DNA of 53,901 bases from a bacterium (GTDB lineage: Bacteria; Electryoneota; RPQS01), in the NCBI GenBank assembly GCA_018812265.1, contig JAHJDG010000164.1, positions 1 through 53,901 of the forward strand. Direction: 5' to 3'. The notes under the pieces were generated by a model. That model searched no databases and was not told where the DNA came from. It was given only the letters and a program-made list of their open reading frames with translations. Position 1 is the first letter of the stretch. Each line of letters begins with the position of its first letter. Positions 5,557-26,864 of this stretch are shown piece after piece. The translations under genes were made by a program, and so were the position numbers.

Positions 5557-7347
5557 CTACCTCAACAGCACCATCTTCCGAATATCGTTGTAATCGCCCG
5601 CGCGCATTCGGCAGAAATAGATGCCCGAGCCGAGTGTGCTTGCGTCGAAAACCACCGACTGCCTTCCCGCCGGAAACGTGCGTTCGGTCAAAGTGGCAAT
5701 ATGTCTCCCGAGCAGGTCGCATACGTCAATCGTTACGAGTCCGGATTTGGGTACATCAAAGCGAATATACGTTCGTGAGTTGAAGGGATTCGGATAATTC
5801 TGTTCCAGTCGGGCGGTGATCGGTATCGGCATTGCGTCATCAGATACGGGCAGACAGTCTATGATGACCGCTTGGATCTGATAGAAGTACGCCGATGGAG
5901 TTGGTGTACCGTCGCCGTTCCATACGTAATAGTGAATGTCCGGCCAGGGCTCTGCGTTTTCACCCAATATCTGCGGAAAATGCTCCGGTTCCGTGTCGTT
6001 CGTAACCTCAAGCCATACCCAGAAGTCCTCGTACCACCACGGGTACAAGTCCGCCGGAAAAGTGACTTCCCTTTGCGACTCAGGACCCGTCTCGTAGGAA
6101 TGAACCACGATCACCGTGTCCAAGATTTCTTCCCCTGGACTCCCTCCCGCGTCCCGATACACGTGCCAGCGCATTTCGCGATCTCCTGTTTGTTCCGCGG
6201 AGAATCGCGCTCGAATTCTGTCCAAACGATAACAGAGTCCCACCACGGAATCCCGCACCGGCGTAAAATGAACTAACGGACCCGAACCCGGAGAGTAGTC
6301 AAGACTCCGTGACATCGTGCGATTATCGTAACCAATCAGAATATCCGATCCCGCCGGCCACACGACCACCGACTCGACCGTCGTCGTGTCGTTGGCGGGA
6401 TTTTGGTCCCCGCCATATCCCGATCGTGCTTGTATCGCATAGGTGCCGGAAATGGACAGGGCGAGCGCCGTGTCGCGGGAAATCATCTCTCCCGGCGGCA
6501 GGGAGAATACTCCGAAAAACGGTCTCCACGGATTTCCGATCACCCGCCACCACGTCTGAACGTCATGCAGTGTACCCACGCTCTCGTTTCGGAAGTAAGC
6601 GGTAATGCGGAAGGGACGGTTGACAAGATTCGGATAGCGAACTTGCAGACTGTAGCAGGAAATGTCGTTGACGGCGGGCGGCCAATACTCCAGGATCACG
6701 TTGTCGAAGCGTAGACCGGAATCCACGAGAGTATCGAGATTGCTCTGAAAGTAGAGCCGCAATTGGATCACGTACCCCATCAAGGGAGTGAAAAAAAAGG
6801 GTTCGAAGAAATCCTGCCACTGAGAGGGACAATCGCTGAATACATAGTCCGTTCCCATTGAATCACAGGTCGGATTGAACGCATTGCACCAGGTAACGCC
6901 GGAGTCACGGGAGACCTCGATTTTCCACCAGTCGCAATCAGGGTAGGTTTGCTGGCGCGGCAGATATCCGCTAATCATGAGATTCGCCGCCAACCAACCA
7001 CCGGAGATCGAGCGGAGATCAATCAAGGGCGAGGTCAAGGTGGTGGTAACGCCCGGAGGGTACAAGCCGGTTGTGGAGTCATTGCAAACGATGACAAGGG
7101 TTCCGTTGGTCGAGCTCGTGTCCTGCTCGATTCTCCAAAGTCCGTCACTCGGTATCCAGTCGGATAGATCACCGTTCTCCCAACCTTCCCAGTAAACGAT
7201 TTCGTCCAGCGTATGAAGAATACGTTGCGCGCGCGCCTCCGTTTTTCGGACAATGGAGTTGCTGATGGAGACGGGATGAACTTCTGCCGTCGAAACTGCC
7301 GCCACAGAAACCGCTATGGCCGCCAGAAATGCTGCAAGTCCTTTCAT
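5557..7347 (-). CDS. Secreted surface protein with type IX secretion sorting domain
   Basis: 596 aa. A signal peptide (residues 1-21) is followed by a region with Asp/Trp-rich beta segments like a jelly-roll adhesin module, and a CARDB-like stretch around 220-330. The C-terminal domain from about residue 514 begins with the hallmark QNYPNPFN and ends in a KMVLLR tail. That is the Por/type A sorting signal, which directs export through the outer membrane by the type IX system and attachment to the surface in FCB bacteria. The start is supported by a GGGGAG site just upstream. No catalytic motif was recognised. The gene is monocistronic: it ends at the 5458 hairpin and starts 158 bp from the end of the AmmeMemoRadiSam operon. 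The ligand or role is unknown. Confidence 0.88.
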   Translation of the reverse strand: MKGLAAFLAAIAVSVAAVSTAEVHPVSISNSIVRKTEARAQRILHTLDEIVYWEGWENGDLSDWIPSDGLWRIEQDTSSTNGTLVIVCNDSTTGLYPPGVTTTLTSPLIDLRSISGGWLAANLMISGYLPRQQTYPDCDWWKIEVSRDSGVTWCNAFNPTCDSMGTDYVFSDCPSQWQDFFEPFFFTPLMGYVIQLRLYFQSNLDTLVDSGLRFDNVILEYWPPAVNDISCYSLQVRYPNLVNRPFRITAYFRNESVGTLHDVQTWWRVIGNPWRPFFGVFSLPPGEMISRDTALALSISGTYAIQARSGYGGDQNPANDTTTVESVVVWPAGSDILIGYDNRTMSRSLDYSPGSGPLVHFTPVRDSVVGLCYRLDRIRARFSAEQTGDREMRWHVYRDAGGSPGEEILDTVIVVHSYETGPESQREVTFPADLYPWWYEDFWVWLEVTNDTEPEHFPQILGENAEPWPDIHYYVWNGDGTPTPSAYFYQIQAVIIDCLPVSDDAMPIPITARLEQNYPNPFNSRTYIRFDVPKSGLVTIDVCDLLGRHIATLTERTFPAGRQSVVFDASTLGSGIYFCRMRAGDYNDIRKMVLLR

Positions 7348-9682: not shown

Positions 9683-11254
9683 TCAGTGATCTCGCAGGGA
9701 GTCGTCTTCGGAAAACACCACGGCCTGAAATACGAGAAACTGCGCGTCCCGCTTCCAGGCGTCGCCCGGCAAACCGGCTTTCTCGCAGAGGTGGCCGAGC
9801 ATTTCCTCCCGCGACCAGTTTTGTTCGGTCGCCACCTGCGGCAGATAGACCGCCGAACGTCCTTCCTTGCGAATCACTACGCCGTCCGTGCCTATGCGAA
9901 TCTTCCCGGCATCCGTGATCGGCTGCATCGGTGTCAGGGCGGAAATCTCGACCGTGATCTCGCTCATTTCGCTTGCGGTCACCGGTCGGAAACGGCGGTC
10001 TTCAAACGCGGCCGACAGCGCCATGCGGCCGACCACGCGATCCAGCGGCGTGTCCTCGGCCATGTGGCCGATGCAGCCGCGCAGCTCGCCGCGCTTTTTC
10101 AGAGTGACAAACGCGCCCTCCTTGATTCTCGCTCCCGCTCCGAATCCCCGTGGGAGAGGCAACGTCTGGCTCGTCAATTGCCACTCGATGGACTTCCGGG
10201 CCAGCGCCAGCAGCGCGCTCTTGTCGCTTGCCGTGAGCACGCTTGTGCTGCCGGCTTCGGGTTGCAGCTGCAAAGCGGAAGTATCCGCTCCGGCTTCGTC
10301 TTTCGTGAAGACGACCGCGCCGTATCCCACCACGCGGTTATAGTCTCCGACCAGCGCGTCTCCCGAATTCGCATAGCTGATGACCGTCCCGCGATTGGCT
10401 CCCCATTTCTTGGCCGCGATCATTGCCGTCAGAATCGGCCCGTCTCCGCAAGCGCACGTGAACAGCCCTTGAACTCGCTGGCTCATTAAAACCGGAATGG
10501 TGGCAAGCACCGCTTCCGCGTCGAGCAAGGCCACGGTCTTCAACATCTCTTTGTCCACTCTGCGCGCATCTTCATATTGCGGATAATGCGACAAGTCCGA
10601 ACTGGCTACGATCAACACGCGACGGTCCTGCAGAATAGTGGTCAGCGCTTCTGCCAGCCGTGTGCAGAGCTCTAAATCGGGACTCCCGATTACGATCGGC
10701 AGGATCTTCGCATCCGGGAAGAGCGTCTGCACAAAAGGAATCTCGACTTCGATGGAGTGTTCCTTGGCGTGCACGCGCGGATCGAAGACGAAGTCCCGGT
10801 CGGCTTCCAGCAGACGATCCGCCGCCTTTTCGTCAATCGCCGCGTCCCCCAGTGGCGTGCGGAAACTTCCCCGCGTGTAAACCGACACGCCGTGGAATCC
10901 GGAGATCGTGTGATTGGTGCCGAGGATCACGATGAGATCGTACGATTCTCCTTCCGTCTGACGGAAGGCGTCGGCGATAATCTGCCCGCAGTACACATAA
11001 CCCGCATGAGGCACAATGATCGCTAAGGGCTTGTCCACGCGCTTGGGCAGCGCCTCGGCCATGAACCGGTCAATCGCCAACCGCAGCGCCGTCGCATCCG
11101 ACGGATAAAACTGTCCCGCGACGGCCGGTTCCCGCACCGTCGCGCTCGTCTGGCGCGCCGAGCACCCGCTGCTCAGAAGAATGAGAACCGATACGATACA
11201 AAGCAATGTGCTTCTGGTCGGAGCAAATCTCCTCTGTGAGAAATCCTGAATCAT
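9683..11254 (-). CDS. amrB-amrA: AmmeMemoRadiSam system proteins B and A fused (MEMO1-AMMECR1), predicted lipoprotein
   Basis: 523 aa. The N-terminus is a lipoprotein signal with lipobox LSSGC (Cys31). Residues about 38-315 are a MEMO1/AmrB domain: AGQFYP, PHAGYVYCG, LGTNH, HSIEVEIPF and ASSDLSHY are all recognisable. Residues about 340-515 are an AMMECR1/AmrA domain with GCIGH and AFEDRRF. MEMO and AMMECR1 usually work with the radical SAM enzyme AmrS; the reaction of the bacterial system is not firmly established. The start ATG overlaps the stop of the upstream radical SAM gene (ATGA), so translation is coupled. The lipid anchor is unusual for these normally cytosolic proteins and suggests the system acts outside the cytoplasm. 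Family assignment is firm; location is predicted. Confidence 0.93.
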   Translation of the reverse strand: MIQDFSQRRFAPTRSTLLCIVSVLILLSSGCSARQTSATVREPAVAGQFYPSDATALRLAIDRFMAEALPKRVDKPLAIIVPHAGYVYCGQIIADAFRQTEGESYDLIVILGTNHTISGFHGVSVYTRGSFRTPLGDAAIDEKAADRLLEADRDFVFDPRVHAKEHSIEVEIPFVQTLFPDAKILPIVIGSPDLELCTRLAEALTTILQDRRVLIVASSDLSHYPQYEDARRVDKEMLKTVALLDAEAVLATIPVLMSQRVQGLFTCACGDGPILTAMIAAKKWGANRGTVISYANSGDALVGDYNRVVGYGAVVFTKDEAGADTSALQLQPEAGSTSVLTASDKSALLALARKSIEWQLTSQTLPLPRGFGAGARIKEGAFVTLKKRGELRGCIGHMAEDTPLDRVVGRMALSAAFEDRRFRPVTASEMSEITVEISALTPMQPITDAGKIRIGTDGVVIRKEGRSAVYLPQVATEQNWSREEMLGHLCEKAGLPGDAWKRDAQFLVFQAVVFSEDDSLRDH

Positions 11255-12501
11255 TGCCAGACTCCGGCTATCGGTTCATCACAATATTCGCATTGTCCGT
11301 TCTTCATGTGCATGGCGGCGATGAAGAATCCGCTGCGTTCGATCACGATCTTTCCACATCGGGGGCAATACGTGTGATTCCCCGCGTGTCCGGGCACGTT
11401 TCCCACGTATGGATAGTGCATTCCCTTGGCCAAAGCTACGCTACGCGCCCGCTCCAGCGTCTCGACCGGTGTGGGCGAGAGGTTGAGCAATTGGTAGTCG
11501 GGATGGAAGCGCGTGAAGTGCACCGGCACGTCCGGTCCGAGTTCACCGATCACCCAGTCGCACAGTTCGCCGATCATCACGTCCGAATCGTTCAGCGTCG
11601 GCACCACCAGATTCACGATTTCGAGGTGAGTGCCGCTCTTCGCCACCTGCCGGATGCTGCGCAGCACGGGCTTCAGCTCCGCCGAACACACCTTGCGGTA
11701 GAAATCCTCGCTGAATCCCTTGAGATCAATCTTGATCGCATCGAGCACCGAGCACATTTCCGCGAGCGGAGCTTCGTTCATGAATCCGCAACTGATGAGC
11801 ACGCTGCGAACGTTCTCCTCGCGGGCGGCGCGGGCGATGTCGGTCAGATACTCGACGAACACCGTCGGTTCGTTGTAGGTGAACGCGATCACCGGAGCGC
11901 GACGATCCACGACGCTGCGGACGATGCTCGCCGGCGGCGTGTAGGCCACGTCATAGTCTTCGGGCCGAATCTGCGAAATCTCCCAGTTCTGACAGAAGCG
12001 GCAATGCAGCGGACAGCCCGAAGTCGCCAGTGAGTACGCCTGAGAACCGGGCAGAAAGTGATAGAACGGCTTCTTCTCGATGGGATCCACGTGAACCGAA
12101 ATCGGTCGGCCATAGACCAGGCTGCGCAGTTCTCCGTTCACGTTCATGCGCGAACGGCATTTGCCGCGCTCGCGGTTGGCGATCATGCAGCTCTGCGCGC
12201 AGAGCAGACATTTTACCGCGAGTTCGTCATGACGATGTCCGGGATCGCTCGCGATCTCCTCGGGCGTATGACACTCCCGACAATGCCCTTCGGCGTGCAG
12301 CGTGGAAACCCAGTACCGCGCGAGCGGCGCCGCCGCCGCCAGCTCGCCGAGCTTATCGCGCGCGTACAGCTCGGACGAACAGCGAAAAACGCTCCGCAGC
12401 CACGGAGAGCTTGAAAACAGGGCATACGCACCGCACGCGGCGATGCCGATTTTCCCGGCTGAGACCAGAAATTCACGTCGTGAAAACTGCTGGATAGTCA
12501 T
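11251..12501 (-). CDS. amrS: AmmeMemoRadiSam radical SAM enzyme with Tat signal
   Basis: 416 aa. It starts with a twin-arginine signal (SRREFL then a hydrophobic stretch to about residue 35). The radical SAM cluster motif is C163-x3-C167-x2-C170 in GCPLHCRFCQNW. Ahead of it are Cys98, Cys101, Cys105 and Cys115, usual for the family. The C-terminus has two CxxC pairs (CPRC, CEYC), a probable metal knuckle. Between the family's N-terminal helix and Cys98 lies an extra segment with C74-R-E-C-H78, a CxxCH motif of the kind that binds heme c in exported proteins. The start has an AAGGA site. It is the first gene of the three-gene operon and overlaps the next start by 4 bp. Substrate unknown; a radical SAM protein carried by Tat is unusual but plausible because Tat moves folded proteins. 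Confidence 0.92.
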   Translation of the reverse strand: MTIQQFSRREFLVSAGKIGIAACGAYALFSSSPWLRSVFRCSSELYARDKLGELAAAAPLARYWVSTLHAEGHCRECHTPEEIASDPGHRHDELAVKCLLCAQSCMIANRERGKCRSRMNVNGELRSLVYGRPISVHVDPIEKKPFYHFLPGSQAYSLATSGCPLHCRFCQNWEISQIRPEDYDVAYTPPASIVRSVVDRRAPVIAFTYNEPTVFVEYLTDIARAAREENVRSVLISCGFMNEAPLAEMCSVLDAIKIDLKGFSEDFYRKVCSAELKPVLRSIRQVAKSGTHLEIVNLVVPTLNDSDVMIGELCDWVIGELGPDVPVHFTRFHPDYQLLNLSPTPVETLERARSVALAKGMHYPYVGNVPGHAGNHTYCPRCGKIVIERSGFFIAAMHMKNGQCEYCDEPIAGVWQ

Positions 12502-12983: not shown

Positions 12984-14330
12984 CTAAGAAATGCCGAACT
13001 GTTTCATTTTCTCGCGCAGCGTTTTACGATCAATTCCGAGGATTTTGGCGGCCGCACTCTTGTTGCCTTTCTGACCGACGACCACTCGCCGGATGTGCTC
13101 GGCTTCGACGTCGGCCAAGGTGCGGTCGAGACTGTAGGTGCGCGCCGCCGAATAGCGCATCAGCGAAGGCAAGTCCGCCACGTCCACCGTGTCGCCGTCG
13201 CTCATGATGATGACCCGGTGGATGATATTCTCCAATTCACGAACGTTGCCCGGCCAGTCGTAGGCCTTGAGAGCCTGCACCGCCCGCTCGCTGAATTGCG
13301 GAACGCGCTTCTCGAATTCTTTGGCGAATTTCCGGGCAAAGTACTGCACGAGCAGAAGCACGTCGTCCCCCCGCTCGCGCAGCGGCGGAACCGCCAGAGT
13401 GATGATATTCAACCGGAAATAGAGGTCCTCGCGGAACGCGCCCTTTTGCACGAGCGCCGCCAGATCCTTGTTGGTGGCGGCCAGAATCTTCACGTCCACG
13501 GTGGTGGCCCGGTTGGCTCCCACCATGCACACCTCATTATCCTGCAGAACGCGCAATAGTTTCACTTGCAGCGCCAGACTCAACTCGCTGATCTCATCGA
13601 AAAAAATGGAACCGCCCTCCGCCGTCTGAAAAAAACCCGCTCGTGATTCGGTGGCGCCCGTAAACGCGCCTTTCACGTGTCCGAACAACTCGCTTTCCAA
13701 AAGTCCCTCGGGAATGCCGCCGCAGTTGATCGGCACAAACGGCCCGGCCGCCCGCGAACTGCAATAGTGAATCGCCCGCGCCACCAGCTCCTTGCCGGTT
13801 CCGCTCTCTCCCGCGATCAGCACCGTGCTCTTCGTGGAAGCGGCCTTCTTCAACGTGCGAATCACCCTCATCATCACGTCCGAGATACCGATCAGACCGA
13901 ACTGCGGCAAATCGGCGATCTCCGATATGCGGTAGCGGGCCCGTCGCTGCCGCAGCTTCCGGAGAACGCGGCCAATCGCTTCCAGCAGCTCGTCATCGGT
14001 GAACGGCTTGGCCAAATACTCTTCCGCGCCCGTCTTCACGGCCGCCACCGCGTTCTGAACCGAAGCGTAGCCGGTAATCATCATCACTTCGGTGTCCCGG
14101 AAGTTGTCGCGGACGTGTCGAATCAAATCCAGACCGCTGGTGCCCGGCATCTTATGATCGGTAATCACGAGGTCTATCGGCGTGGCGGTTAAAACGTCAA
14201 GCGCGGAAGCCGCACTCGCGGCGGTGAACACTTGGTACCCTTGCCGGCTGAGGTTGCGATCAAGCACTTCCACCGTGTCGGGATTGTCGTCCACCACCAG
14301 GATCACTTCACGTTGCGTTGGTTCCGGCAT
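12984..14330 (-). CDS. Sigma-54-dependent response regulator (NtrC family)
   Basis: 448 aa. The receiver domain (about 8-125) has acidic pair VDDN, acceptor Asp58 in ITDHKMPG and Lys in AKPF. The AAA+ domain (about 150-385) has Walker A GESGTGKE, the sigma-54 contact loop GAFTGA, and Walker B FFDE. A C-terminal Fis-type helix-turn-helix (about 405-448) reads AAAKILGIDRKTLREK. It activates sigma-54 promoters when phosphorylated. I place the start at 14330 rather than the in-frame ATG at 14360: the 14330 ATG has GGGAG nine bases upstream and lies 1 bp past the kinase stop, while 14360 lies inside the kinase gene without a ribosome site. The partner is the kinase directly upstream. Targets are unknown. 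Confidence 0.95.
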   Translation of the reverse strand: MPEPTQREVILVVDDNPDTVEVLDRNLSRQGYQVFTAASAASALDVLTATPIDLVITDHKMPGTSGLDLIRHVRDNFRDTEVMMITGYASVQNAVAAVKTGAEEYLAKPFTDDELLEAIGRVLRKLRQRRARYRISEIADLPQFGLIGISDVMMRVIRTLKKAASTKSTVLIAGESGTGKELVARAIHYCSSRAAGPFVPINCGGIPEGLLESELFGHVKGAFTGATESRAGFFQTAEGGSIFFDEISELSLALQVKLLRVLQDNEVCMVGANRATTVDVKILAATNKDLAALVQKGAFREDLYFRLNIITLAVPPLRERGDDVLLLVQYFARKFAKEFEKRVPQFSERAVQALKAYDWPGNVRELENIIHRVIIMSDGDTVDVADLPSLMRYSAARTYSLDRTLADVEAEHIRRVVVGQKGNKSAAAKILGIDRKTLREKMKQFGIS

Positions 14331-14331
14331 G

Positions 14332-16104
14332 TCAGGATTCTCCCGGTTCGAGTGTTCCATTGGCGATCGGCAGTCCCACCTCGAAACGCGTCCCTTTCCC
14401 GACGGCGCTCGTGACCGAAATGGAACCGCCGTGCGCAGTCACGATTCCGTGAACGATCGAGAGCCCCAGCCCCGTGCCCTGTCCCACGTCCTTGGTCGTG
14501 AAAAACGGATCGAAAATCTGCCGCTTGGTCTCCTCGCTCATCCCCGCCCCCGTATCTTCGATCCCCAACACCACCGATGTCTCCCGCCGGCTGATCTCCA
14601 CCGTCAGCGTGCCGCCCTGCGGCATGGCCTGCAACGCGTTCACCACCAGATTCATGATCAGCTCGCTGATCTGTCCGGGATCGGCTACGATTCCGGGAAG
14701 TTCCTCCCCCAACCGGCGGACGATAATGATTCCTTCCTTCTTGCAGCGCGCCTCGAAAAACGAAAGCACCTCGCTGGCGACGTGGGAAAGATCCACCCGG
14801 CCCTTGCTGGGCGGCATCTGCCGTGAGAAGATCAACAGCTTCTGAACGATGTCCCGCCCGTGAAGGGCCGTCTTGATAATCTTGTCCAGGTCCTTCTCGA
14901 GTTGTGGGGTGTCTCCCAGACTCTTCTTGGCGAGCTGCGCAAATCCCAGAACGCCTCCCAGTGGCTCGTTGAGCTCATGCGCGACACCGGCCGCCAATTG
15001 CCCCAGCGTAGCCAGGCGGTCGGCGCGACGAACCTGAAGTTCCAACCGGATTTTCGTCTCTTCCGCCTCTTCCCGCTCGATGATCCCCGCCACTTGCCGC
15101 GCCACCTCGGCGATGAGCGCCGCTTCCTCTTTCAGGAACGGCCCCTCCGCATGCTCGGGCTTGCCCTCGATGTAAATGATTTCCAGCGTGCCTCGTTTCC
15201 GACCTTTGACGATGATGCTGGTCTGCTCCCGGTAGCGACCCGCCCGATACATCGAAGTCAGATAGGTGGCATGATCGAGGTCAATCCGCGCCGCGGCCAC
15301 GTCGGGATGCTGCAAGGCGGGCGGCAGAAGATCAATGATTCGCTGGAGTTTCTCCGCTCGCGTCCACTCCGGCTTGTCAACGATTTGGGCAATCTCATAC
15401 AGACAGCTTAACTCCTTGACCCGTTCCCCGAGCGCCCATTGAGCTCGACGATGAGCGCTGGCCAACCCTAAAATCTGTACCACGCCTTCATGGAGCGCGA
15501 TCTGTTCCACGGCGACCAGGCGGGGTTGCCCGCTGGCGATCAGAACGATTCCCCGATTGCGCTCCGTATAGAGGAATGGAAAAATCGCCAGAGACCGGAT
15601 ACTCTTGCCCGACCGCAACGTCGGGAGGCTCTCGGGTAGCAGGGCCGGCGGCAGGTGCCGGACGTCGTCCGTCCATAGACTTCCCCCAGCCGTCAAAAAG
15701 CCGGATGCCTTGCTTTGCGCGGGAGCTAATACGATACGACAGAGCTTTTCGAGGCCGCCCGGGAATGCAGAAGCGATTCCCTCGGGATCATCGGAGCCGT
15801 GAAGAAGCGCGAAGTCGTATGGATGTCGTGATTCCCGTGTCGCCCGCCACAGATAGCGGATGTCACCATCGTAATGTCCGATTTCGAGTTCATCGGCTCC
15901 GCTGAACTCCAAGAGGAGTCGGGAAACTTCCCTGAGAAATTCGATCCTCGACGGGCTGCCACTGGCTGAGCGTAAAATCCCCTGGGACAGTTCCAGAAAC
16001 TCCTCCGGTGAGCGAACCGCCAGCGAGGATTTCATCGCCAGCGGTTCATTCTGCCTCAGTGCCGACGGCAATCTACTCTGAATGTCGCCTGATTCTTCTG
16101 GCAT
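14332..16104 (-). CDS. Cytoplasmic sensor histidine kinase with GAF-like regions, partner of the NtrC-type regulator
   Basis: 590 aa from the ATG at 16104; a TTG seven codons earlier (16122) is also possible, and neither has a clear ribosome site. No TM segment is seen. The N-terminal 350 residues resemble weak GAF domains. HisKA has His376 in GVAHELNEPLGG. The ATPase has NLVVNALQAM, DTGAGM and GTGLGLSIVHG. This is the NtrB/HydH-like kinase class that pairs with sigma-54 regulators. It is followed after 1 bp by the regulator gene, so the two form a two-component operon. The signal is probably cytoplasmic. Confidence 0.92.
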   Translation of the reverse strand: MPEESGDIQSRLPSALRQNEPLAMKSSLAVRSPEEFLELSQGILRSASGSPSRIEFLREVSRLLLEFSGADELEIGHYDGDIRYLWRATRESRHPYDFALLHGSDDPEGIASAFPGGLEKLCRIVLAPAQSKASGFLTAGGSLWTDDVRHLPPALLPESLPTLRSGKSIRSLAIFPFLYTERNRGIVLIASGQPRLVAVEQIALHEGVVQILGLASAHRRAQWALGERVKELSCLYEIAQIVDKPEWTRAEKLQRIIDLLPPALQHPDVAAARIDLDHATYLTSMYRAGRYREQTSIIVKGRKRGTLEIIYIEGKPEHAEGPFLKEEAALIAEVARQVAGIIEREEAEETKIRLELQVRRADRLATLGQLAAGVAHELNEPLGGVLGFAQLAKKSLGDTPQLEKDLDKIIKTALHGRDIVQKLLIFSRQMPPSKGRVDLSHVASEVLSFFEARCKKEGIIIVRRLGEELPGIVADPGQISELIMNLVVNALQAMPQGGTLTVEISRRETSVVLGIEDTGAGMSEETKRQIFDPFFTTKDVGQGTGLGLSIVHGIVTAHGGSISVTSAVGKGTRFEVGLPIANGTLEPGES

Positions 16105-16428
16105 TTTTTTCTTATTAATCAATTAGATAATAGCGTGATCCGAAGTCGGATCGGCTGATCAAACCAAGTGGATGTCTGGCAAAGAATATACGGGTCGCTG
16201 TCAGGGAAAGCAACCAAAACATGCGGTTTGGTGGCCCTTTTCGCCCCAGTTGAAATCGCATCGCAAGACACTGTCGCCGGCCATTTCAAGGTGGTGGATT
16301 CGACTTGTTCCACCTCGACCTTTTCTTATCAATCATTGTCTTATTAAATATTTACAGGGGTCGGCATAATTGTTGGAGCTTGTTTTTGGGTATCAGGCTA
16401 TGTTTTTTAACAATTGCACTTCAGATTA

Positions 16429-16555: not shown

Positions 16556-16672
16556 TCGGCAGGCGATCAATTTCCTGTCTGGCGATACCTGTCCGCACGC
16601 TACTTGGGCTGAGAGCACATCGGACTCGCGGAAAACGTGTTCTTTACTGTGCAAGGCAAAGGAGATGGGCAG

Positions 16673-19600
16673 ATGAAGAAGTGCATGTTGTGGTTCGTGT
16701 GTTTGGTGATGTTCTGCAATGTTCAGGGCATTCCAGCCGAAGCGCCTGAGATCAGCCAGGAGGAGTTGGCCCGACAGGCCGAGCTTGCAGAGCAGGCGGT
16801 TGTCGCCGCCAAGGATGCCGAGCAGGCCACGATTCGTGCTCTGTACGATCGCCTGTTGACGGGCGACGACCTGAATGAGGCCGAGAAGGACCTCGTGTAC
16901 GCCAACATGGGATGGCTGGAACCGCGTCGTCCCGGTGGCAGCGTTGACAACGCCGGTGGCCCCGATGCATTCGGCTACCGCTACGTGGACAACGTGGCCC
17001 CCGACACGGCCACCTACAACTGGATCGAGCTGAAGGGCGATCCGTCGGCCACCTGGCTGCCGTCTACCGCCTTCTCCAGCATGGATGCGGCGGTGAACAA
17101 TGCCGATCTGCCGATTGGCTTCACCTTCCCGTTCTACGGCGGCAGCTACACCATCTTCCGCGTCAGCGTAGACGGCAACATCCAGTTCGTTCCGACCTAC
17201 AGCACGGGCGGATACTCCACCTGTATCCCCAACGGATCGGTGGTTCGTCCGGCGATCATGCCGTTCATGGATGACCTCTACCTCACGCGGGGCGGGATCA
17301 CCACCGGCAACAACGTGATCGGCTATCGCAATTTCACCGGCTATACGGTGATTCAGTTCGACTCGATCGGCCGCTACAGCACCACCGATCGCGGATCGTT
17401 CAACTATCAGGCCATTTTGTTCCCCGACGGCAAGATCAAGGTTCAGGTTCGGCGGGCCTTCTTTCAGACGGCCAATGCCGACAGCGCCCATGCCATCGGG
17501 ATTCAGCAGGGTGGTTCGACCAATCCGGCTCTGCAGTACGTCTGTGACCGCACCGGATATTCGCTGGGCGGTTTCGGATTGGACTCGACGATCAACCGGG
17601 CCATCTGGTTCTTTCAGTTGTTCCTGACCAATGACTTCGGGACGACCAGTCTGGTGACTCCCAGCCCGACCGGCATTCACGAGCCCAGTTCGGTGGTCAC
17701 GGTCAGCGCGATGGTCAAGAATTTCGGCTCGACCACCGAGTCCTCGCCCGTGTACTACTCGTTCAACGGCGGTGCGGCGGTGGGTCCCGAGACCAGCCCC
17801 GTGCTGAGCACCAACCAGTCCGGGCAGGTGACCTTTGCGACGCAACTGACCTTGCCGGCCACGCCGGGGATTTATCCGCTCAAGGTCTATACCAATCTGG
17901 CGACCGATGGGGATCGCGGCAACGATACTCTGACGGTGAATCTCAACGTGAACTACTGCTACGACACCAATCTGGGCAGCGCGCTTCCCGTCAACCTGAC
18001 GGGTGAAACTACTTGCGGCATGGTGGACAACTACTTCAACACTTGCCTCGGATCATATGATGGGGGCGAAGACCAAGTCTACCGTTGGGAGGTCACCACT
18101 GCGGGTGAATACACGATCCGGTTGAATCCCGGCACGACCACCTATACGGGCATCGCCATTGACGACGAATGCCCACCGGCCGCAACCTGTATCGCCTATC
18201 ACACTCAGTCCACCGCCACACCCCACGGCATTACGTGTCTCGCCCTGAATCCCGGTGTGTACTATATCATGGTGGATACGTATCCATCGCCCTACTGCAT
18301 CCCCGACTACAGCCTGACCATCGAGGTGTGTCTCCCCTGCGACTCGATTCCGCTGTGCGGAACGCCCGCCGAGACCGAACCCAACAACACCTGCGCGACG
18401 TTCGATGCCTATGTGCTGAGTCATGACGATGTGATCTATGCCCGCCATTGCCCCGAAGCCGACAGTGACTGGTACCGGGTGATGATTCCACCGATGAACC
18501 AGCTCACCCTTGACTTGTTCGACGGCACGAACTGCACCGTCAGTCCGTCCACCACGGTACGATACAAGGTCGCCGACGCCGCCTGCAGCGGCATCACCGG
18601 TCCCTACACCGGTCCGCGCACGTATTTGAACTGCACCAATGATCCGTTGACGATCCATGTCATGGTCTACGAAACGACTACCCCGGCACGAACCGCCTAC
18701 AAGCTGACCACCACTTGCACCACCAACCTCTACTGTGGCACTCCGACCGAGACCGAGCCCAACAATACGTGCGCGACGTATGACGCCTACGAACTCGACT
18801 GCACGAATAACGTGGTCTATGGTCTGCACTGCCCGGCGAGCGACAGCGACTTCTTCAAGATCACCATTCCACCCGGAACCCATGCGGTGATCAAAGCCTA
18901 CGTGGGCACGGGCTGCAACGTCAATCCGCCGAACACCAACATCTACACCCAGCTCTACACCACAGATTGCACACCGGTGGGTTCAGCCGGAACGTCCAAC
19001 AAGACCGTCAACTACTGCCACGGGACGGTGGATACCACGGTGTATCTGTTGGTGAAAAATTACGGCACGACCACGCAGTACACGGGTCCCTATAAGATCG
19101 AGGTGGTCTGCGGCACGGCTCCCACCAATGACTTGTGCGAGAACGCTATTCCGGTGGCTATCGGTTCGAGCACGATCGGCAACACCTTCTGTACCACCGT
19201 AGATAACGCCCCGATCTGTGACAATTATAACCCGGCGACGTCCGGCCCTGGAGTGTGGTACACGTTCGTTGGCAACAACGACCTCATCCAAGTCGGAACG
19301 TGTAATCCCAACACGCCTCTTGACACAAAAGTGAACGTATATAGTGGTGACTGCGCCAATCTGGTGTGTGTGACCGGTGATGACGATGATTGCACGGCGC
19401 CGGGTCTGGCGTCCCTCGACACCGTTTGTGCGCTGGCCGGAGTTACCTATTACGTTCTGGTGTACAACTACTCGACCGGCACGGTGTCCAACGTCTTTCA
19501 GTTGGATCTGGTAGACCTCGGCGTTCCCTGTGACGTCGGCCGCTGCTGCTACGGCGACGTGACCAATCCGAGCTGTATGGACACGACCGCGGCCCGCTGT

Positions 19601-22189
19601 ACGGAACTGGGCGGCGCGTGGACGTTCGGTCTGAACTGCACGGCCAATCCGTGCCCGGTCTGCGTAGTGGACCAGAGCGTAACCGCTCCCGGCCAATGGA
19701 CCGGAACCACTGCCGGTGACGACTGCGATCTCCGCACCGGCGCGGACTATATGTTCGAGGTCACGATCCCCTACGCCAGCACCTGGACCTTCTCGCTGTG
19801 CAACACCAGCCTGGCCTGGGACACCTATCTGTATCTGTCCCAGTTCTGCTGCAACGGCTACCTCTACTTGAACGACGACTACTGCGGCGCGGTCTCGGAG
19901 ATCAATTGTGTCTCGCTGACTGCCGGCACCTACTACCTTGACGTCGAGCCTTACAGCACCTCGTATTCCGGCGCATTCGTGCTGGATGTGTACGACTGTG
20001 CCTGTCAAGACTTCGCATGCACATATACCATAGAAGAGGTGTACGCGAACCTCTCCAGTCTCGTGGGCAGGTGGATCTACGTGTTCTGTTATACCACACC
20101 CAGTGATTTGTTCGTGGGTGATTTCGCCGCCTACGAAGCCAACACCCCGCTGCCCGAGAACGTGATCATGACTCGCGCGGGAAGTGTCACTGTTCCCGAT
20201 TCCCTGAATTACGGAGCGGCTGTTTTGGCGGGAGGAATCGTGGGCTGCGATTCCACTCGGCTGCTCGGCTACTGTCTAACGATCCAAGTGGACACTCTCG
20301 TTTACCTGCTGCCGGCGATGACCACGTCCGTTCTGTCTCCCTGTCTTCTGCAGCCGCTCGAACCCTGTGACTCGTGCAAGTTCGCCATCTTCATTTCCGG
20401 TGGGGTAGATTCAGACAACAACCACGCGGACTACTACAACGATCTGAAGTACTGGTACCAGTACAAACGAAACATCGGCTACTGCAGCGAGAACATCAAG
20501 GTCTTCTACTACGAAGGTTCGAGGCCACCGGGGGATACGACGATTCCCGCCGCTAATGTGCAGGCGGCCACGACGGCAAACATCCAAACCGCCGTGAATG
20601 ACATCTCGCGGAAAGTGAAAGCCTGTGAGACGGCTAATCCGGGAAGTTCGGAAGTGGAAATCATGGTCACCAACCACGGAGATCCTTCGGGTATCTGCCT
20701 GCTTGGTGACAGCGTTTTCATTACCCCGGAGCAATTCACGGCCTTCAAGCAGACTCTGGTGGACTCCGGCCTGTCCAAACTGGATATCGAACAGGGACAG
20801 TGCTTCGGCGGAAACATGCTGGAGGAGCCGGGTTTTCGACCGGGAAAATGCAACGTGACGGAATCCTCCGCCGCTGACGACTCTCAATACTCGTATAGCG
20901 AGCGTGGCCAGAACGGCTACAACATCTGGCTCAACGCCAAGCGTGAAGCCCTCAGCTCCGGGCTCCCGCTTCCACAGGCGATTCAAAGGGCGGATTCCCT
21001 CTACAACCAATGGCTGAAAGCCCAGGCCGACAGTGCACGAGCCGAAGCACAACGATTGGGAGACATTGCGGCCGATACGACCAAACCGGACTCCGTCCGC
21101 GCTAAGGCCATTCTTGAACAATTGGAGTGGCTCATTGATGCCGGACAATATGAGATGGACGCCAACCGCCAGATGTACGTTCACTACAGATGGTTCTCCG
21201 GATACTGCAAAATGGACACCATCAAGGTCCCGCGTGGAGGAGCGGTCAAGCTGAAATTCAGCGGCGACAGCACCAGTTGCGGCAACTGCGAGGTCTGGGA
21301 ACTCGACGGTCAGGGGAAAATCGTGAAACGACTCAAGTGGAACTGGACCATCCCCGGCTCCCGTTACCATGTTGCTGGCGGGGACGAGCGCTGGCTACAT
21401 GCCGATTCGAACTCGACCGGCATCTTCATCGTCAAGAACAACGATTCCACCTGGAGCTACAAGGTAGAAACGTGGCCGGTGGATCACGAATCCAGCCCCA
21501 GCAACGAGGCGACTTTCTCCGGTTTCTCGGAAGGCGGTTGGAACGATAGTCCGGCCGAATTCGGCTATCCGGCGGGTCCGGTCGTCGTAGTGAATGAAGG
21601 GCCCGGCTTGAACCTCTACACATTGCCCGCCGAAATGTCACCGGGGGGAGTCAGCACTCTCCAAGTCAACTACGAAATCCTCGAACAGAATTATTGGTGG
21701 AGCGCGATGCAGTGGTACGCCCGCTTCCTCGAGGTGGAGCCCAATACCGGCATCCGTGTTCAGTGTGAAAATGCGTTGGTTCCGGACGACACTCTGTACG
21801 TTTCCGATCCCGGGGAATACGCCGTTAATCTGGGCGCGATTTCCGGCACGGGAACTCACGCTCTTACTCTAACGCTTCTTTCCGGTTCCGTAACCTTCGA
21901 CAACTGGGCGCTGCGCACCACGCTCTCCACCGGCTTCGAATGCGAACTGGCCGACAGTGTAGCCGTGTACGTCTGTCCGCAGTGGGGTCCCAACCCAACC
22001 CTCCATTTCTATGCCCCGCGGGACGGCAATTACTGGATCTTCAGCACCACCGACCGGAATTTGGTCTTCAGCCCGGTTACATGGCTGCTGGAAGCCGATC
22101 TCCCGGTGCTTGCCGGATGGAATCACTGGATGGATCCGGCTGCGCCCGTTTCCTACAAGCGGTATGTAGTGGTTCATCTCTGCGAGTAG
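16673..22189 (+). CDS. Giant secreted protein with PPC-like repeats and a clan-CD (legumain/caspase-like) peptidase domain
   Basis: 1838 aa. I start at 16673, where ATG follows AAAGGAG and opens a signal peptide (MKKCMLWF to about residue 22); the ATG at 16637 has no such site. Regions in order: a helical Ala/Glu-rich stretch (25-70); a nidogen-like beta domain (75-320, with GFTFPFYG); a CARDB-like Ig domain (325-425); Cys-rich PPC-like repeats near 429, 562 and 688, two opening with ETEPNNTC; a related NDLCENA domain near 816; a Cys knot near 956; and another beta domain near 997. At about 1232-1420 the order is FAIFISGG strand, TNHG with His1335, and GQCFGG with Cys1377, matching the His-Gly and Gln/Ala-Cys dyad of clan CD peptidases. 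The C-terminal 400 residues are beta-rich and of unknown type. There is no type IX sorting tail. It is probably a surface or released protease or adhesin. Confidence 0.82.
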   Translation: MKKCMLWFVCLVMFCNVQGIPAEAPEISQEELARQAELAEQAVVAAKDAEQATIRALYDRLLTGDDLNEAEKDLVYANMGWLEPRRPGGSVDNAGGPDAFGYRYVDNVAPDTATYNWIELKGDPSATWLPSTAFSSMDAAVNNADLPIGFTFPFYGGSYTIFRVSVDGNIQFVPTYSTGGYSTCIPNGSVVRPAIMPFMDDLYLTRGGITTGNNVIGYRNFTGYTVIQFDSIGRYSTTDRGSFNYQAILFPDGKIKVQVRRAFFQTANADSAHAIGIQQGGSTNPALQYVCDRTGYSLGGFGLDSTINRAIWFFQLFLTNDFGTTSLVTPSPTGIHEPSSVVTVSAMVKNFGSTTESSPVYYSFNGGAAVGPETSPVLSTNQSGQVTFATQLTLPATPGIYPLKVYTNLATDGDRGNDTLTVNLNVNYCYDTNLGSALPVNLTGETTCGMVDNYFNTCLGSYDGGEDQVYRWEVTTAGEYTIRLNPGTTTYTGIAIDDECPPAATCIAYHTQSTATPHGITCLALNPGVYYIMVDTYPSPYCIPDYSLTIEVCLPCDSIPLCGTPAETEPNNTCATFDAYVLSHDDVIYARHCPEADSDWYRVMIPPMNQLTLDLFDGTNCTVSPSTTVRYKVADAACSGITGPYTGPRTYLNCTNDPLTIHVMVYETTTPARTAYKLTTTCTTNLYCGTPTETEPNNTCATYDAYELDCTNNVVYGLHCPASDSDFFKITIPPGTHAVIKAYVGTGCNVNPPNTNIYTQLYTTDCTPVGSAGTSNKTVNYCHGTVDTTVYLLVKNYGTTTQYTGPYKIEVVCGTAPTNDLCENAIPVAIGSSTIGNTFCTTVDNAPICDNYNPATSGPGVWYTFVGNNDLIQVGTCNPNTPLDTKVNVYSGDCANLVCVTGDDDDCTAPGLASLDTVCALAGVTYYVLVYNYSTGTVSNVFQLDLVDLGVPCDVGRCCYGDVTNPSCMDTTAARCTELGGAWTFGLNCTANPCPVCVVDQSVTAPGQWTGTTAGDDCDLRTGADYMFEVTIPYASTWTFSLCNTSLAWDTYLYLSQFCCNGYLYLNDDYCGAVSEINCVSLTAGTYYLDVEPYSTSYSGAFVLDVYDCACQDFACTYTIEEVYANLSSLVGRWIYVFCYTTPSDLFVGDFAAYEANTPLPENVIMTRAGSVTVPDSLNYGAAVLAGGIVGCDSTRLLGYCLTIQVDTLVYLLPAMTTSVLSPCLLQPLEPCDSCKFAIFISGGVDSDNNHADYYNDLKYWYQYKRNIGYCSENIKVFYYEGSRPPGDTTIPAANVQAATTANIQTAVNDISRKVKACETANPGSSEVEIMVTNHGDPSGICLLGDSVFITPEQFTAFKQTLVDSGLSKLDIEQGQCFGGNMLEEPGFRPGKCNVTESSAADDSQYSYSERGQNGYNIWLNAKREALSSGLPLPQAIQRADSLYNQWLKAQADSARAEAQRLGDIAADTTKPDSVRAKAILEQLEWLIDAGQYEMDANRQMYVHYRWFSGYCKMDTIKVPRGGAVKLKFSGDSTSCGNCEVWELDGQGKIVKRLKWNWTIPGSRYHVAGGDERWLHADSNSTGIFIVKNNDSTWSYKVETWPVDHESSPSNEATFSGFSEGGWNDSPAEFGYPAGPVVVVNEGPGLNLYTLPAEMSPGGVSTLQVNYEILEQNYWWSAMQWYARFLEVEPNTGIRVQCENALVPDDTLYVSDPGEYAVNLGAISGTGTHALTLTLLSGSVTFDNWALRTTLSTGFECELADSVAVYVCPQWGPNPTLHFYAPRDGNYWIFSTTDRNLVFSPVTWLLEADLPVLAGWNHWMDPAAPVSYKRYVVVHLCE

Positions 22190-24308: not shown

Positions 24309-26864
24309 CTATTCCTGTTCCTCTTCCTCGAATTCAGTTTCCCCCGTGCCCTCCAAATCTGCCAGAGCTTCCTGAATAGCCGTCAACTCGGAATCCGTAA
24401 TCCCCCAGAGCTTGGCGGCGAGCCGGTCAATTTCATCCTCCAGCTTGCGAACGGCGACTTTGTCGCCTGCTGCAACAGAATGGCATCGTCGCGACAAATC
24501 GGACAAACTGACTGAGGTGCTCTTGTCATTGTCAAATCTTGGAATATTCAGAAGTTCTAAGACATGAGGAGATGGGTGTAATGCAATGTATCCTCTCAGT
24601 AGAGCTTGCGCTGGACATGAATTAAGAAGTCCACAGACATAATAGGCTTCACGAGCACTTTTGAGCGACACGAATACCAATGTGTGAGCCGGGAGAATAG
24701 GAGTATTCCCGTCATCCCGTTGCGGTCCACAGACGGCAGCTCGGACAGAATAACCAACCTCAGGCCACATCACCTTCCATTTCGCCAGGGTGTAAGATCC
24801 TACATTGTACATTGAATAGAAAGGATCCGTGTCTTTGAAATACTTCCTATACAGCGCTCGGCCTCTCAGTGTGCCGCGTTGCGGATTCTTCTTGTTTCCC
24901 TCGAATCGCTTCAGATAAGCATAGGTCTTGGGAAGCTCGACTCTCATCTTCGACTCGGCAATTCCCTTTCCTTTGTCAGGATCCTGTGCGAGTATAATAT
25001 GCGCAGAAGGTTCGGCAATCCATCGATGGACGTCTCGACCTCGCAGTAGCGGATAGACCAGATCAGGCTCGATCACCGCTTCCACTTCCTCGACTTTGAT
25101 CTTGCCAACGTTGTGAAGATTGCGGATATGGATATCCTTATTCAGCAAACGGCGTAGAATCTCGATCCAGTAGCATCCATTCAATCCTCCAGTGTTCACT
25201 CCCTCATAGGCAACATAATCGCTTTTCCCAATGATCTTGCGGATTCCGGGAATTGCCTCGCGCGGCACCGTCAACCACGGCGAACCTTTCTTGGTTTTTT
25301 GAATCGGTTCCGCTGCCATTTCCGTCACATAGACGGCTTGAAGCACATCTTCCAGAGGAGCTTCCGGGTTTATTCGCGATGGTCCTCGCCAGACGTCATA
25401 CTGGACTGGGTAGCTGAAGTTCTCGCTCTGTTTCTCGCAGAGAAAGACCGCCGTTCGATTCGTCGCTCCCTCGAACACCTGCATAGCGCTGAGGTCATGT
25501 ACGGATAACGGCTTGAGCACAACCGGCCGGTTATCCCGGAAGTATTTCAATCCCCGAAATCCCTCTCCGGCTCCCTTCGTCTTGAAAACGGTTTGCGTGA
25601 TCACAAAACCGAGTTTTCCCCCGTAATCCAAATAGTGATCCACGCAACAGTGCGTGAAGAGCATGGAAAGATCCTTCTTGCCTCCGCCCAGTCGCGCCTG
25701 CGTTCCCGATAGCGTGAACAGCCGGTAACGTTCCCACAGAGATTTCGACGCCGCGCGATATTCGTCAGGTAAGCTTTCCCAATTCACCCACGGCGGATTG
25801 CCCACCACCAGATCTACCTTGCCGAGAAAGAGCGGTGCGAAGTTGTTCTTGATGAGCCGCGCCCAGATGCCGTTTTTGTTCTCCTTTTTCAAACGATGCA
25901 GTTTGTCGTAGAGATCAACATGGATCTCTCGATTCACCGTCGGGAGCCTAAGACTGGCGCATCGTTTCAGGAATTCATCCGCTGTGTGATCGTTCAGTAC
26001 GCAGTCTTCAATAACCTCCGTGTATCGGGCAAGCTCAGAGCGATCAGCGGCGATCTCCGTGGGCATCTGAAACCAACCCTCGGCCGTCTTCACCGAGCGT
26101 GAATCGTCCTTGTCCTTGAAAAATCCCCCATACTCAGACGGAATGACGACGGAATCGCAAAGATATACGGGAATCTCCACCTCGCGGACATAGCGAAAGA
26201 GGTCGAGGACGCTCAAGAGATAGTTCGCGCGAGCGGCCATGACCGCCAGAGGATTCAGATCAAACCCAACCACGTTTCGCTGTAATTTGAAAAGCAACTC
26301 GCCCTGACCGTATCCGCATTCAAACCGGTGGTGGTCGTACCAAGATTTTGCCCGTTTGATGGCTGCCACCAAGAATGTGCCCGATCCACACGCCGGATCA
26401 AGCACGCGAACATCGGGATTCCCATCGTATCCCAGTTCGTCCAATACGAACTCTGCAAGCCAATCAGGTGTGTAATACTCGCCCAAATCATGTCGGACCG
26501 AACGCGGGAACAACCGATGGTACAGTTGCTTCAGCAAGTCGCGGGACTGCTCCGGATCTACACTTAGTGAAGTGGGTTCATAGGCGTCGAGCCGATGAAC
26601 GATATTCCAAAGAGCTTCCGCCAATCGGTCATCCCAAGCGTCAATGTACCAAGTGAACAAATCACCTTCCAGGAAATTCGTAAGCCCATATTGACGCCAA
26701 ATTCCCCCTTGTTCCAAGTCGCTGAGATGAGTCCGAAGTGCGGCGGGGGACTCCGCCCCGATAAGTCTCTGCAGAATCGAAGTGCCTAACGGCGAAAGTT
26801 GCGAGGCAATCTCCGCCACCAGCAACTTCATGAACATCGCGTAGTAGGTGTGCACGCTGAACAA
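24309..26864 (-). CDS. Type IIG-like restriction-modification protein, methylase and specificity part
   Basis: 851 aa from a TTG; in-frame coding similarity continues 14 codons further upstream to an in-frame TAG at 26907-26909. N6-adenine methylase motif I is DPACGSGTFL, preceded by GEYYTPDWLAE, and motif IV is NPPWVNW. The C-terminal 450 residues resemble the target-recognition region of Eco57I-like enzymes. Upstream of the TAG, in the same frame, is the nuclease part (26907-27596), so the two pieces are one gene split by one stop codon. The gene is visibly less GC-rich than the Gfo/Idh gene beside it, a sign of transfer. Its insertion between Gfo/Idh and lpxB remnant supports that. It is active only if the stop is read through, if the parts work as separate subunits, or if the stop is a sequencing error. 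Confidence 0.88.
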   Translation of the reverse strand: MFSVHTYYAMFMKLLVAEIASQLSPLGTSILQRLIGAESPAALRTHLSDLEQGGIWRQYGLTNFLEGDLFTWYIDAWDDRLAEALWNIVHRLDAYEPTSLSVDPEQSRDLLKQLYHRLFPRSVRHDLGEYYTPDWLAEFVLDELGYDGNPDVRVLDPACGSGTFLVAAIKRAKSWYDHHRFECGYGQGELLFKLQRNVVGFDLNPLAVMAARANYLLSVLDLFRYVREVEIPVYLCDSVVIPSEYGGFFKDKDDSRSVKTAEGWFQMPTEIAADRSELARYTEVIEDCVLNDHTADEFLKRCASLRLPTVNREIHVDLYDKLHRLKKENKNGIWARLIKNNFAPLFLGKVDLVVGNPPWVNWESLPDEYRAASKSLWERYRLFTLSGTQARLGGGKKDLSMLFTHCCVDHYLDYGGKLGFVITQTVFKTKGAGEGFRGLKYFRDNRPVVLKPLSVHDLSAMQVFEGATNRTAVFLCEKQSENFSYPVQYDVWRGPSRINPEAPLEDVLQAVYVTEMAAEPIQKTKKGSPWLTVPREAIPGIRKIIGKSDYVAYEGVNTGGLNGCYWIEILRRLLNKDIHIRNLHNVGKIKVEEVEAVIEPDLVYPLLRGRDVHRWIAEPSAHIILAQDPDKGKGIAESKMRVELPKTYAYLKRFEGNKKNPQRGTLRGRALYRKYFKDTDPFYSMYNVGSYTLAKWKVMWPEVGYSVRAAVCGPQRDDGNTPILPAHTLVFVSLKSAREAYYVCGLLNSCPAQALLRGYIALHPSPHVLELLNIPRFDNDKSTSVSLSDLSRRCHSVAAGDKVAVRKLEDEIDRLAAKLWGITDSELTAIQEALADLEGTGETEFEEEEQE

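What the first reader, a model, noticed from the sequence alone, without database searches (positions are those of the whole stretch)
20365..20930. Hidden legumain/caspase-like peptidase domain in a giant surface protein
Seen: after more than 1200 residues of beta and Cys-rich repeats comes FAIFISGG, then TNHG (His1335), then 42 residues later GQCFGG (Cys1377). Known: clan CD peptidases (legumain C13, caspase C14, gingipain C25, clostripain C11) share a hydrophobic strand, His-Gly, and a [A/Q/S]-Cys motif at about this spacing. Inference: the protein is a self-processing or toxin-like surface protease, similar in idea to the RTX/TcdB cysteine protease domains.
Basis: partly seen in the sequence, partly recalled or inferred. 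Interest (0 to 1): 0.72.

Follow-up and report, generated by a model that had tools for sequence, protein, structure and literature searches.

The report
Legumain-like protease in secreted mosaic protein
A very large exported protein of an uncultured bacterium carries a real but highly diverged legumain-type cysteine protease domain, a new bacterial branch of a known enzyme group rather than a new kind of system or a toxin.

Summary
An ATG (16673) with a good ribosome-binding site and signal peptide starts an 1838-residue protein; its residues ~1226-1453 contain FAIFISGG, TNHG (H1335) and GQCFGG (C1377). The caspase/legumain reading also holds and can be narrowed to family C13. Three orthologues (45-47% identity) and 13 distant secreted relatives keep the His, the Cys and an upstream Asn without exception. 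The distant set matches Pfam Peptidase_C13 (13 of 13, best 3.8e-13); the window protein itself does not. A two-sequence AlphaFold model (pTM 0.65, patchy confidence) puts His at the end of one core strand and Cys at the end of the next; its best PDB matches are plant legumains/asparaginyl ligases, with the GPI transamidase also among the top ten. C25, C80 and C11 do not appear. The 'self-processing' and 'toxin-like' parts are unsupported: most relatives carry type IX secretion tails, and nothing toxin-like was found. The window branch has Gly where relatives and legumains have Glu two residues before the Cys, so legumain's Asn specificity should not be assumed. Best explanation: an exported legumain-like cysteine endopeptidase on a surface mosaic protein, of unknown substrate. 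New variant of a known kind; moderate interest.

The parts
16673..22189 (+). Whole gene from the likely ATG; 1838 aa, N-terminal signal peptide (MKKCMLWFVCLVMFCNVQG...)
   Evidence: ORF; Shine-Dalgarno-like AAAGGAGA upstream of ATG; signal peptide read by eye, not predicted by a program
16946..17896 (+). Beta domain shared with the distant C13 peptidases, where it lies C-terminal instead of N-terminal of the protease
   Evidence: phmmer domain i-E down to 2.5e-12
18074..18277 (+). PPC-like (bacterial pre-peptidase C-terminal) module
   Evidence: PF04151, E 7.7e-5, 23.9 bits, just below the 25.9-bit cut-off
19094..19540 (+). Module shared with the three orthologues (40-43% identity)
20021..20347 (+). 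Conserved module directly before the protease domain
   Evidence: orthologue alignment runs unbroken from about residue 1129 to 1770
20348..21030 (+). C13-like (legumain-type) cysteine peptidase domain
20420..20422 (+). Invariant Asn (N1262 from GTG, N1250 from ATG), probable equivalent of the legumain catalytic Asn
   Evidence: 17 of 17; equivalence inferred, the profile alignment is one residue off
20669..20680 (+). TNHG with catalytic His (nt 20675-20677)
   Evidence: 17 of 17; aligned to the legumain catalytic His
20795..20812 (+). GQCFGG with catalytic Cys (nt 20801-20803); Gly at Cys-2
   Evidence: Cys 17 of 17; -2 is Gly in 4 of 4 close and Glu in 13 of 13 distant relatives
21031..21175 (+). 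Helical linker after the protease domain
   Evidence: helices in the low-confidence model; linker also present in orthologues
21176..21946 (+). Conserved C-terminal beta domain with CxxC (CGNC)
   Evidence: 34-36% identity in the three orthologues
21929..22186 (+). About 85-residue C-terminal module, recurrent at the end of many other large proteins of this lineage

Best explanation
The region is a divergent legumain-type (family C13-like, clan CD) cysteine peptidase domain embedded in an exported mosaic protein. The chain is probably exported by Sec, then held on the surface or released. Its beta and PPC-like modules probably bind substrate or the cell surface, and the Cys/His pair, oriented by the Asn, cuts peptide bonds in an outside protein. 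Shown here: homology, conserved catalytic residues, predicted fold, shared modules with T9SS-tailed C13 peptidases. Inferred: export, activity, role of the other modules. Substrate and P1 preference are open; Gly at Cys-2 argues against assuming Asn.
For: Asn, His, Gly and Cys invariant in 17 sequences. The 13 distant relatives match PF01650, best 3.8e-13, and up to 47 bits in a genome search. Window group versus that set by hhalign: probability 94.9, E 4.2e-8. Profile of all 17 finds plant and human legumains and metacaspase-4 in the PDB at E 1e-9 to 1e-5, with the catalytic His and Cys aligned to VPE-gamma. AlphaFold model made only from the window and one orthologue: pTM 0.65, beta-alpha order of a caspase-like fold, His and Cys at the ends of strands 102-110 and 144-152. 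Foldseek of that model: top five hits are plant legumain/asparaginyl ligase chains, probability 0.99-1.00, and the GPI transamidase complex (chain 7wld_K) ranks seventh. Most full-length relatives carry T9SS tails, above cut-off in the four scanned.
Against: No Pfam or NCBIfam match for the protease domain of the window sequence itself, and the profile of the four close sequences alone finds no legumain. Identity to the PF01650-matching set is only about 20%. Model confidence is low after the Cys (residues 150-195, pLDDT below 50), and TM-scores to legumain are only about 0.4-0.45. No activity data. The window protein has no T9SS type A tail.
Confidence: 0.75

Rival explanations
1. Self-processing: the domain cuts its own chain, for example at the helical linker or in the preceding modules, to mature or release the surface protein.
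For: The protease lies inside the chain, and the module before it and the domain after it are conserved with it in orthologues. Autocleavage is common in clan CD (legumain and gingipain need cleavage for activation, PMC4357240).
Against: No cleavage site can be identified. Distant relatives carry the same domain in a different module order, so there is no fixed intramolecular target. The domain is absent from most large exported proteins of the lineage that share its C-terminal module.
Confidence: 0.2
2. Transpeptidase or ligase: like plant asparaginyl ligases or the GPI transamidase, both C13, it joins or anchors proteins rather than degrading them.
For: Top Foldseek hits include peptide asparaginyl ligases and the human GPI transamidase complex.
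Against: Those hits reflect family fold, not chemistry. No paired anchor substrate or sorting signal was identified. The gene stands alone, with no shared neighbours around the orthologues.
Confidence: 0.1
3. Chance motif or non-peptidase alpha/beta domain.
For: Loose motif is common by chance; no direct Pfam hit; weak absolute TM-scores.
Against: Invariant N/H/C over 17 sequences, PF01650 matches in relatives, legumains on top of the fold search.
Confidence: 0.03

Closest known systems
Family C13 peptidases (legumain / vacuolar processing enzyme / asparaginyl ligase)
   Same: Predicted fold, His after one core strand and Cys after the next, His-Cys spacing of about 42, the hydrophobic strand and SA-type motif downstream of the Cys
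   Different: About 20% identity even to its PF01650-matching bacterial relatives; Gly instead of Glu at Cys-2; embedded in an 1838-residue mosaic protein; no legumain-type C-terminal prodomain recognised
T9SS-tailed bacterial C13 peptidases of the same phylum (L005-L011, L020-L024, L028)
   Same: Homologous protease domain and a shared second beta domain
   Different: Smaller (about 990-1050 aa), protease near the N-terminus, EPC instead of GQC, classical T9SS type A tail
Metacaspases (C14)
   Same: Clan CD fold; metacaspase-4 matched by the 17-sequence profile
   Different: Not among the leading fold matches; acidic S1 residue preceding the metacaspase Cys (own knowledge) absent here
Gingipains (C25) and MARTX/TcdB cysteine protease domains (C80)
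   Same: Clan CD; gingipains are likewise exported bacterial surface proteases
   Different: No sequence match and no leading fold match to either; no toxin modules seen

Membership tests
Peptidase family C13 (legumain) | Match to the PF01650 model over its cut-off | tested here: not met
   Window: none. Distant relatives: 13 of 13 match at E <= 1, many over cut-off
Peptidase family C13 (legumain) | Catalytic His-Gly and Cys at equivalent positions, conserved | tested here: met
   Invariant in 17 of 17 and aligned to legumain His and Cys
Peptidase family C13 (legumain) | Catalytic Asn upstream | tested here: inconclusive
   Invariant Asn present, profile alignment to legumain off by one
Peptidase family C13 (legumain) | Caspase-type sheet with His and Cys at ends of neighbouring strands | tested here: met
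   AlphaFold pTM 0.65 and Foldseek to legumains, probability 1.00; confidence low after the Cys
Peptidase family C13 (legumain) | Glu two residues before the Cys (S1 pocket of legumain) | tested here: not met
   Gly in 4 of 4 of the window group, Glu in 13 of 13 distant relatives
Peptidase family C13 (legumain) | Cleavage after Asn or Asp | not testable with these tools
   Needs enzyme assay
Clan CD families C25, C80, C11 | Sequence or fold similarity to solved members | tested here: not met
   None among profile hits. Among the 50 listed fold hits no C25, C11 or isolated C80 domain; two whole large clostridial toxin chains appear at ranks 34 and 38 with probability about 0.2, no better than unrelated Rossmann-type folds
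T9SS type A cargo | TIGR04183 C-terminal tail | tested here: not met
   No NCBIfam match in the window protein; relatives and at least 150 places in the same genome have it

The most novel reading that the evidence does not exclude
The branch is a C13-type transpeptidase with changed P1 specificity that anchors or ligates proteins on the surface of a T9SS-bearing bacterium, with the recurrent 85-residue C-terminal module as an alternative sorting or attachment signal.
Probability: 0.05. Interest if true: 0.7.

Novelty: new variant of a known kind. Interest (0 to 1): 0.36.

Why it matters
It shows that automatic annotation with Pfam and NCBIfam misses a legumain-type protease branch in large exported proteins of uncultured bacteria. 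Bacterial C13 enzymes are recorded but little studied. If active, this branch and its T9SS-tailed relatives would be exported bacterial counterparts of legumain, parallel to the gingipains (C25), and their changed S1 position makes a testable case of specificity change; ligase activity would be of practical use.

Tried and rejected
Single-sequence AlphaFold of a longer piece gave pLDDT 55.6 and meaningless fold matches. A profile of the four closest sequences alone found no legumain in the PDB, only repeat proteins and chance hits. Scans of viral contigs with three queries found no relatives; the two genome-contig scans found none and one, the latter an orthologue already known. No gene neighbourhood is shared with the orthologues beyond the T9SS tails of neighbours. 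Relatives found by the genome search were not put in the folding alignment, because that tool's text names only loci from other tools. C80/MARTX-like, C25 and chance readings were rejected for lack of any convincing match. Paper searches gave nothing on T9SS-exported C13 enzymes. The lineage could not be named: an orthologue lies in a record titled only 'bacterium isolate SJ276'.

Full report
Observation. The ORF at 16637-22189 (+) reads 1850 aa from GTG. FAIFISGG, TNHG and GQCFGG are present at nt 20381, 20669 and 20795. A loose version of the motif occurs about 0.5 times per shuffled copy of this protein, so the motif alone proves little.

Relatives. The domain is single-copy in its genome. 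Among 60 related genomes, three members of the same family carry orthologues of about 1110-1130 aa, 45-47% identical in the domain, and other families of the phylum carry more distant copies, often two or three per genome. In an alignment of 17 sequences an Asn, the His-Gly and the Cys are invariant. Thirteen members, the number of distant sequences, match Peptidase_C13 (best 3.8e-13); the window does not, and its orthologues' genomes give no match over the cut-off at these places. The two groups are homologous: hhalign probability 94.9, E 4.2e-8, and an HMM of the distant group scores the window 27.5 bits against 11.5 for the best of 200 shuffles. The 17-sequence profile finds legumains, asparaginyl ligases and metacaspase-4 in the PDB (E 1e-9 to 1e-5), and its printed alignment to VPE-gamma places the catalytic His and Cys on ours.

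Fold. A model built from the window and one orthologue only, and so independent of the distant group, reached pTM 0.65 and mean pLDDT 64.5. Strand 102-110 ends in the His (residue 110 of the model) and strand 144-152 in the Cys (152), the order of the caspase-type fold. Foldseek against the PDB lists plant legumain and asparaginyl ligase chains at ranks 1-5 (probability 0.99-1.00) and the GPI transamidase complex (chain 7wld_K) at rank 7; TM-scores are modest (about 0.4-0.45) and the part after the Cys is poorly predicted. Legumain, caspases and paracaspases share one topology (PMC4357240), so it is the sequence signal and the hit list, rather than topology, that point to C13.

Architecture. 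Before the protease lie a beta domain (residues ~104-420), a PPC-like module, Cys-rich modules, and a module conserved in orthologues; after it come a helical linker and a conserved beta domain. The residue 104-420 domain also occurs in the distant C13 peptidases, but after the protease. Those relatives mostly end in T9SS type A tails: seven of the eight distant ORFs read have the tail by eye (the eighth runs off the stretch read), and it is above cut-off in the four scanned. The window protein has no such tail, although its genome holds at least 150 matches. Instead it ends in an 85-residue module seen at or near the end of many other large proteins of the lineage.

Active-site difference. 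Two residues before the Cys the window group has Gly and the distant group Glu; legumains have Glu there (EAC, visible in the alignment), part of the S1 pocket by my own knowledge. Asparaginyl specificity is therefore not assumed for the window group.

Judgement. Domain identity as a clan CD, C13-like cysteine peptidase is well supported (about 0.95); an exported endopeptidase acting on outside proteins is the most likely function (about 0.75 for the statement as a whole, with export and activity inferred). Self-processing is possible but untested; toxin-like function has no support. I file it as C13-like rather than as a full C13 member, because the PF01650 match and the S1 Glu were tested and not met.

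Noticed in passing
window 21929-22186; L080-L099: An ~85-residue FN3-like module ending in K/R-x-Y/F-V-V-x-x-x-C-P/N/Q closes many large exported proteins in this and related genomes, and is internal in a few; it could be an alternative C-terminal sorting module beside the T9SS tail.
   Followed up: partly
G000 whole genome; window 5557-7347 (-): At least 150 matches to the T9SS type A sorting tail (TIGR04183), one of them in window ORF 5557-7347 (-), so the organism probably has a type IX secretion system.
   Followed up: partly
L031, L032 (G000:C220): Two neighbouring ORFs with WD40-like repeats followed by caspase-like domains (S/AGHGAP ... DACFSG), separate from the C13-like protein.
   Followed up: no
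window 9683-12501 (-): A Memo-AMMECR1 fusion next to a radical SAM protein, the AmmeMemoRadiSam set of unknown function.
   Followed up: no
window 12984-16122 (-): An NtrC-type regulator and a histidine kinase lie divergently upstream of the protease gene; a regulatory link is possible but untested.
   Followed up: no
window 24309-26864 (-): Large Eco57I/N6-type DNA methylase ORF, possibly part of a restriction system.
   Followed up: no
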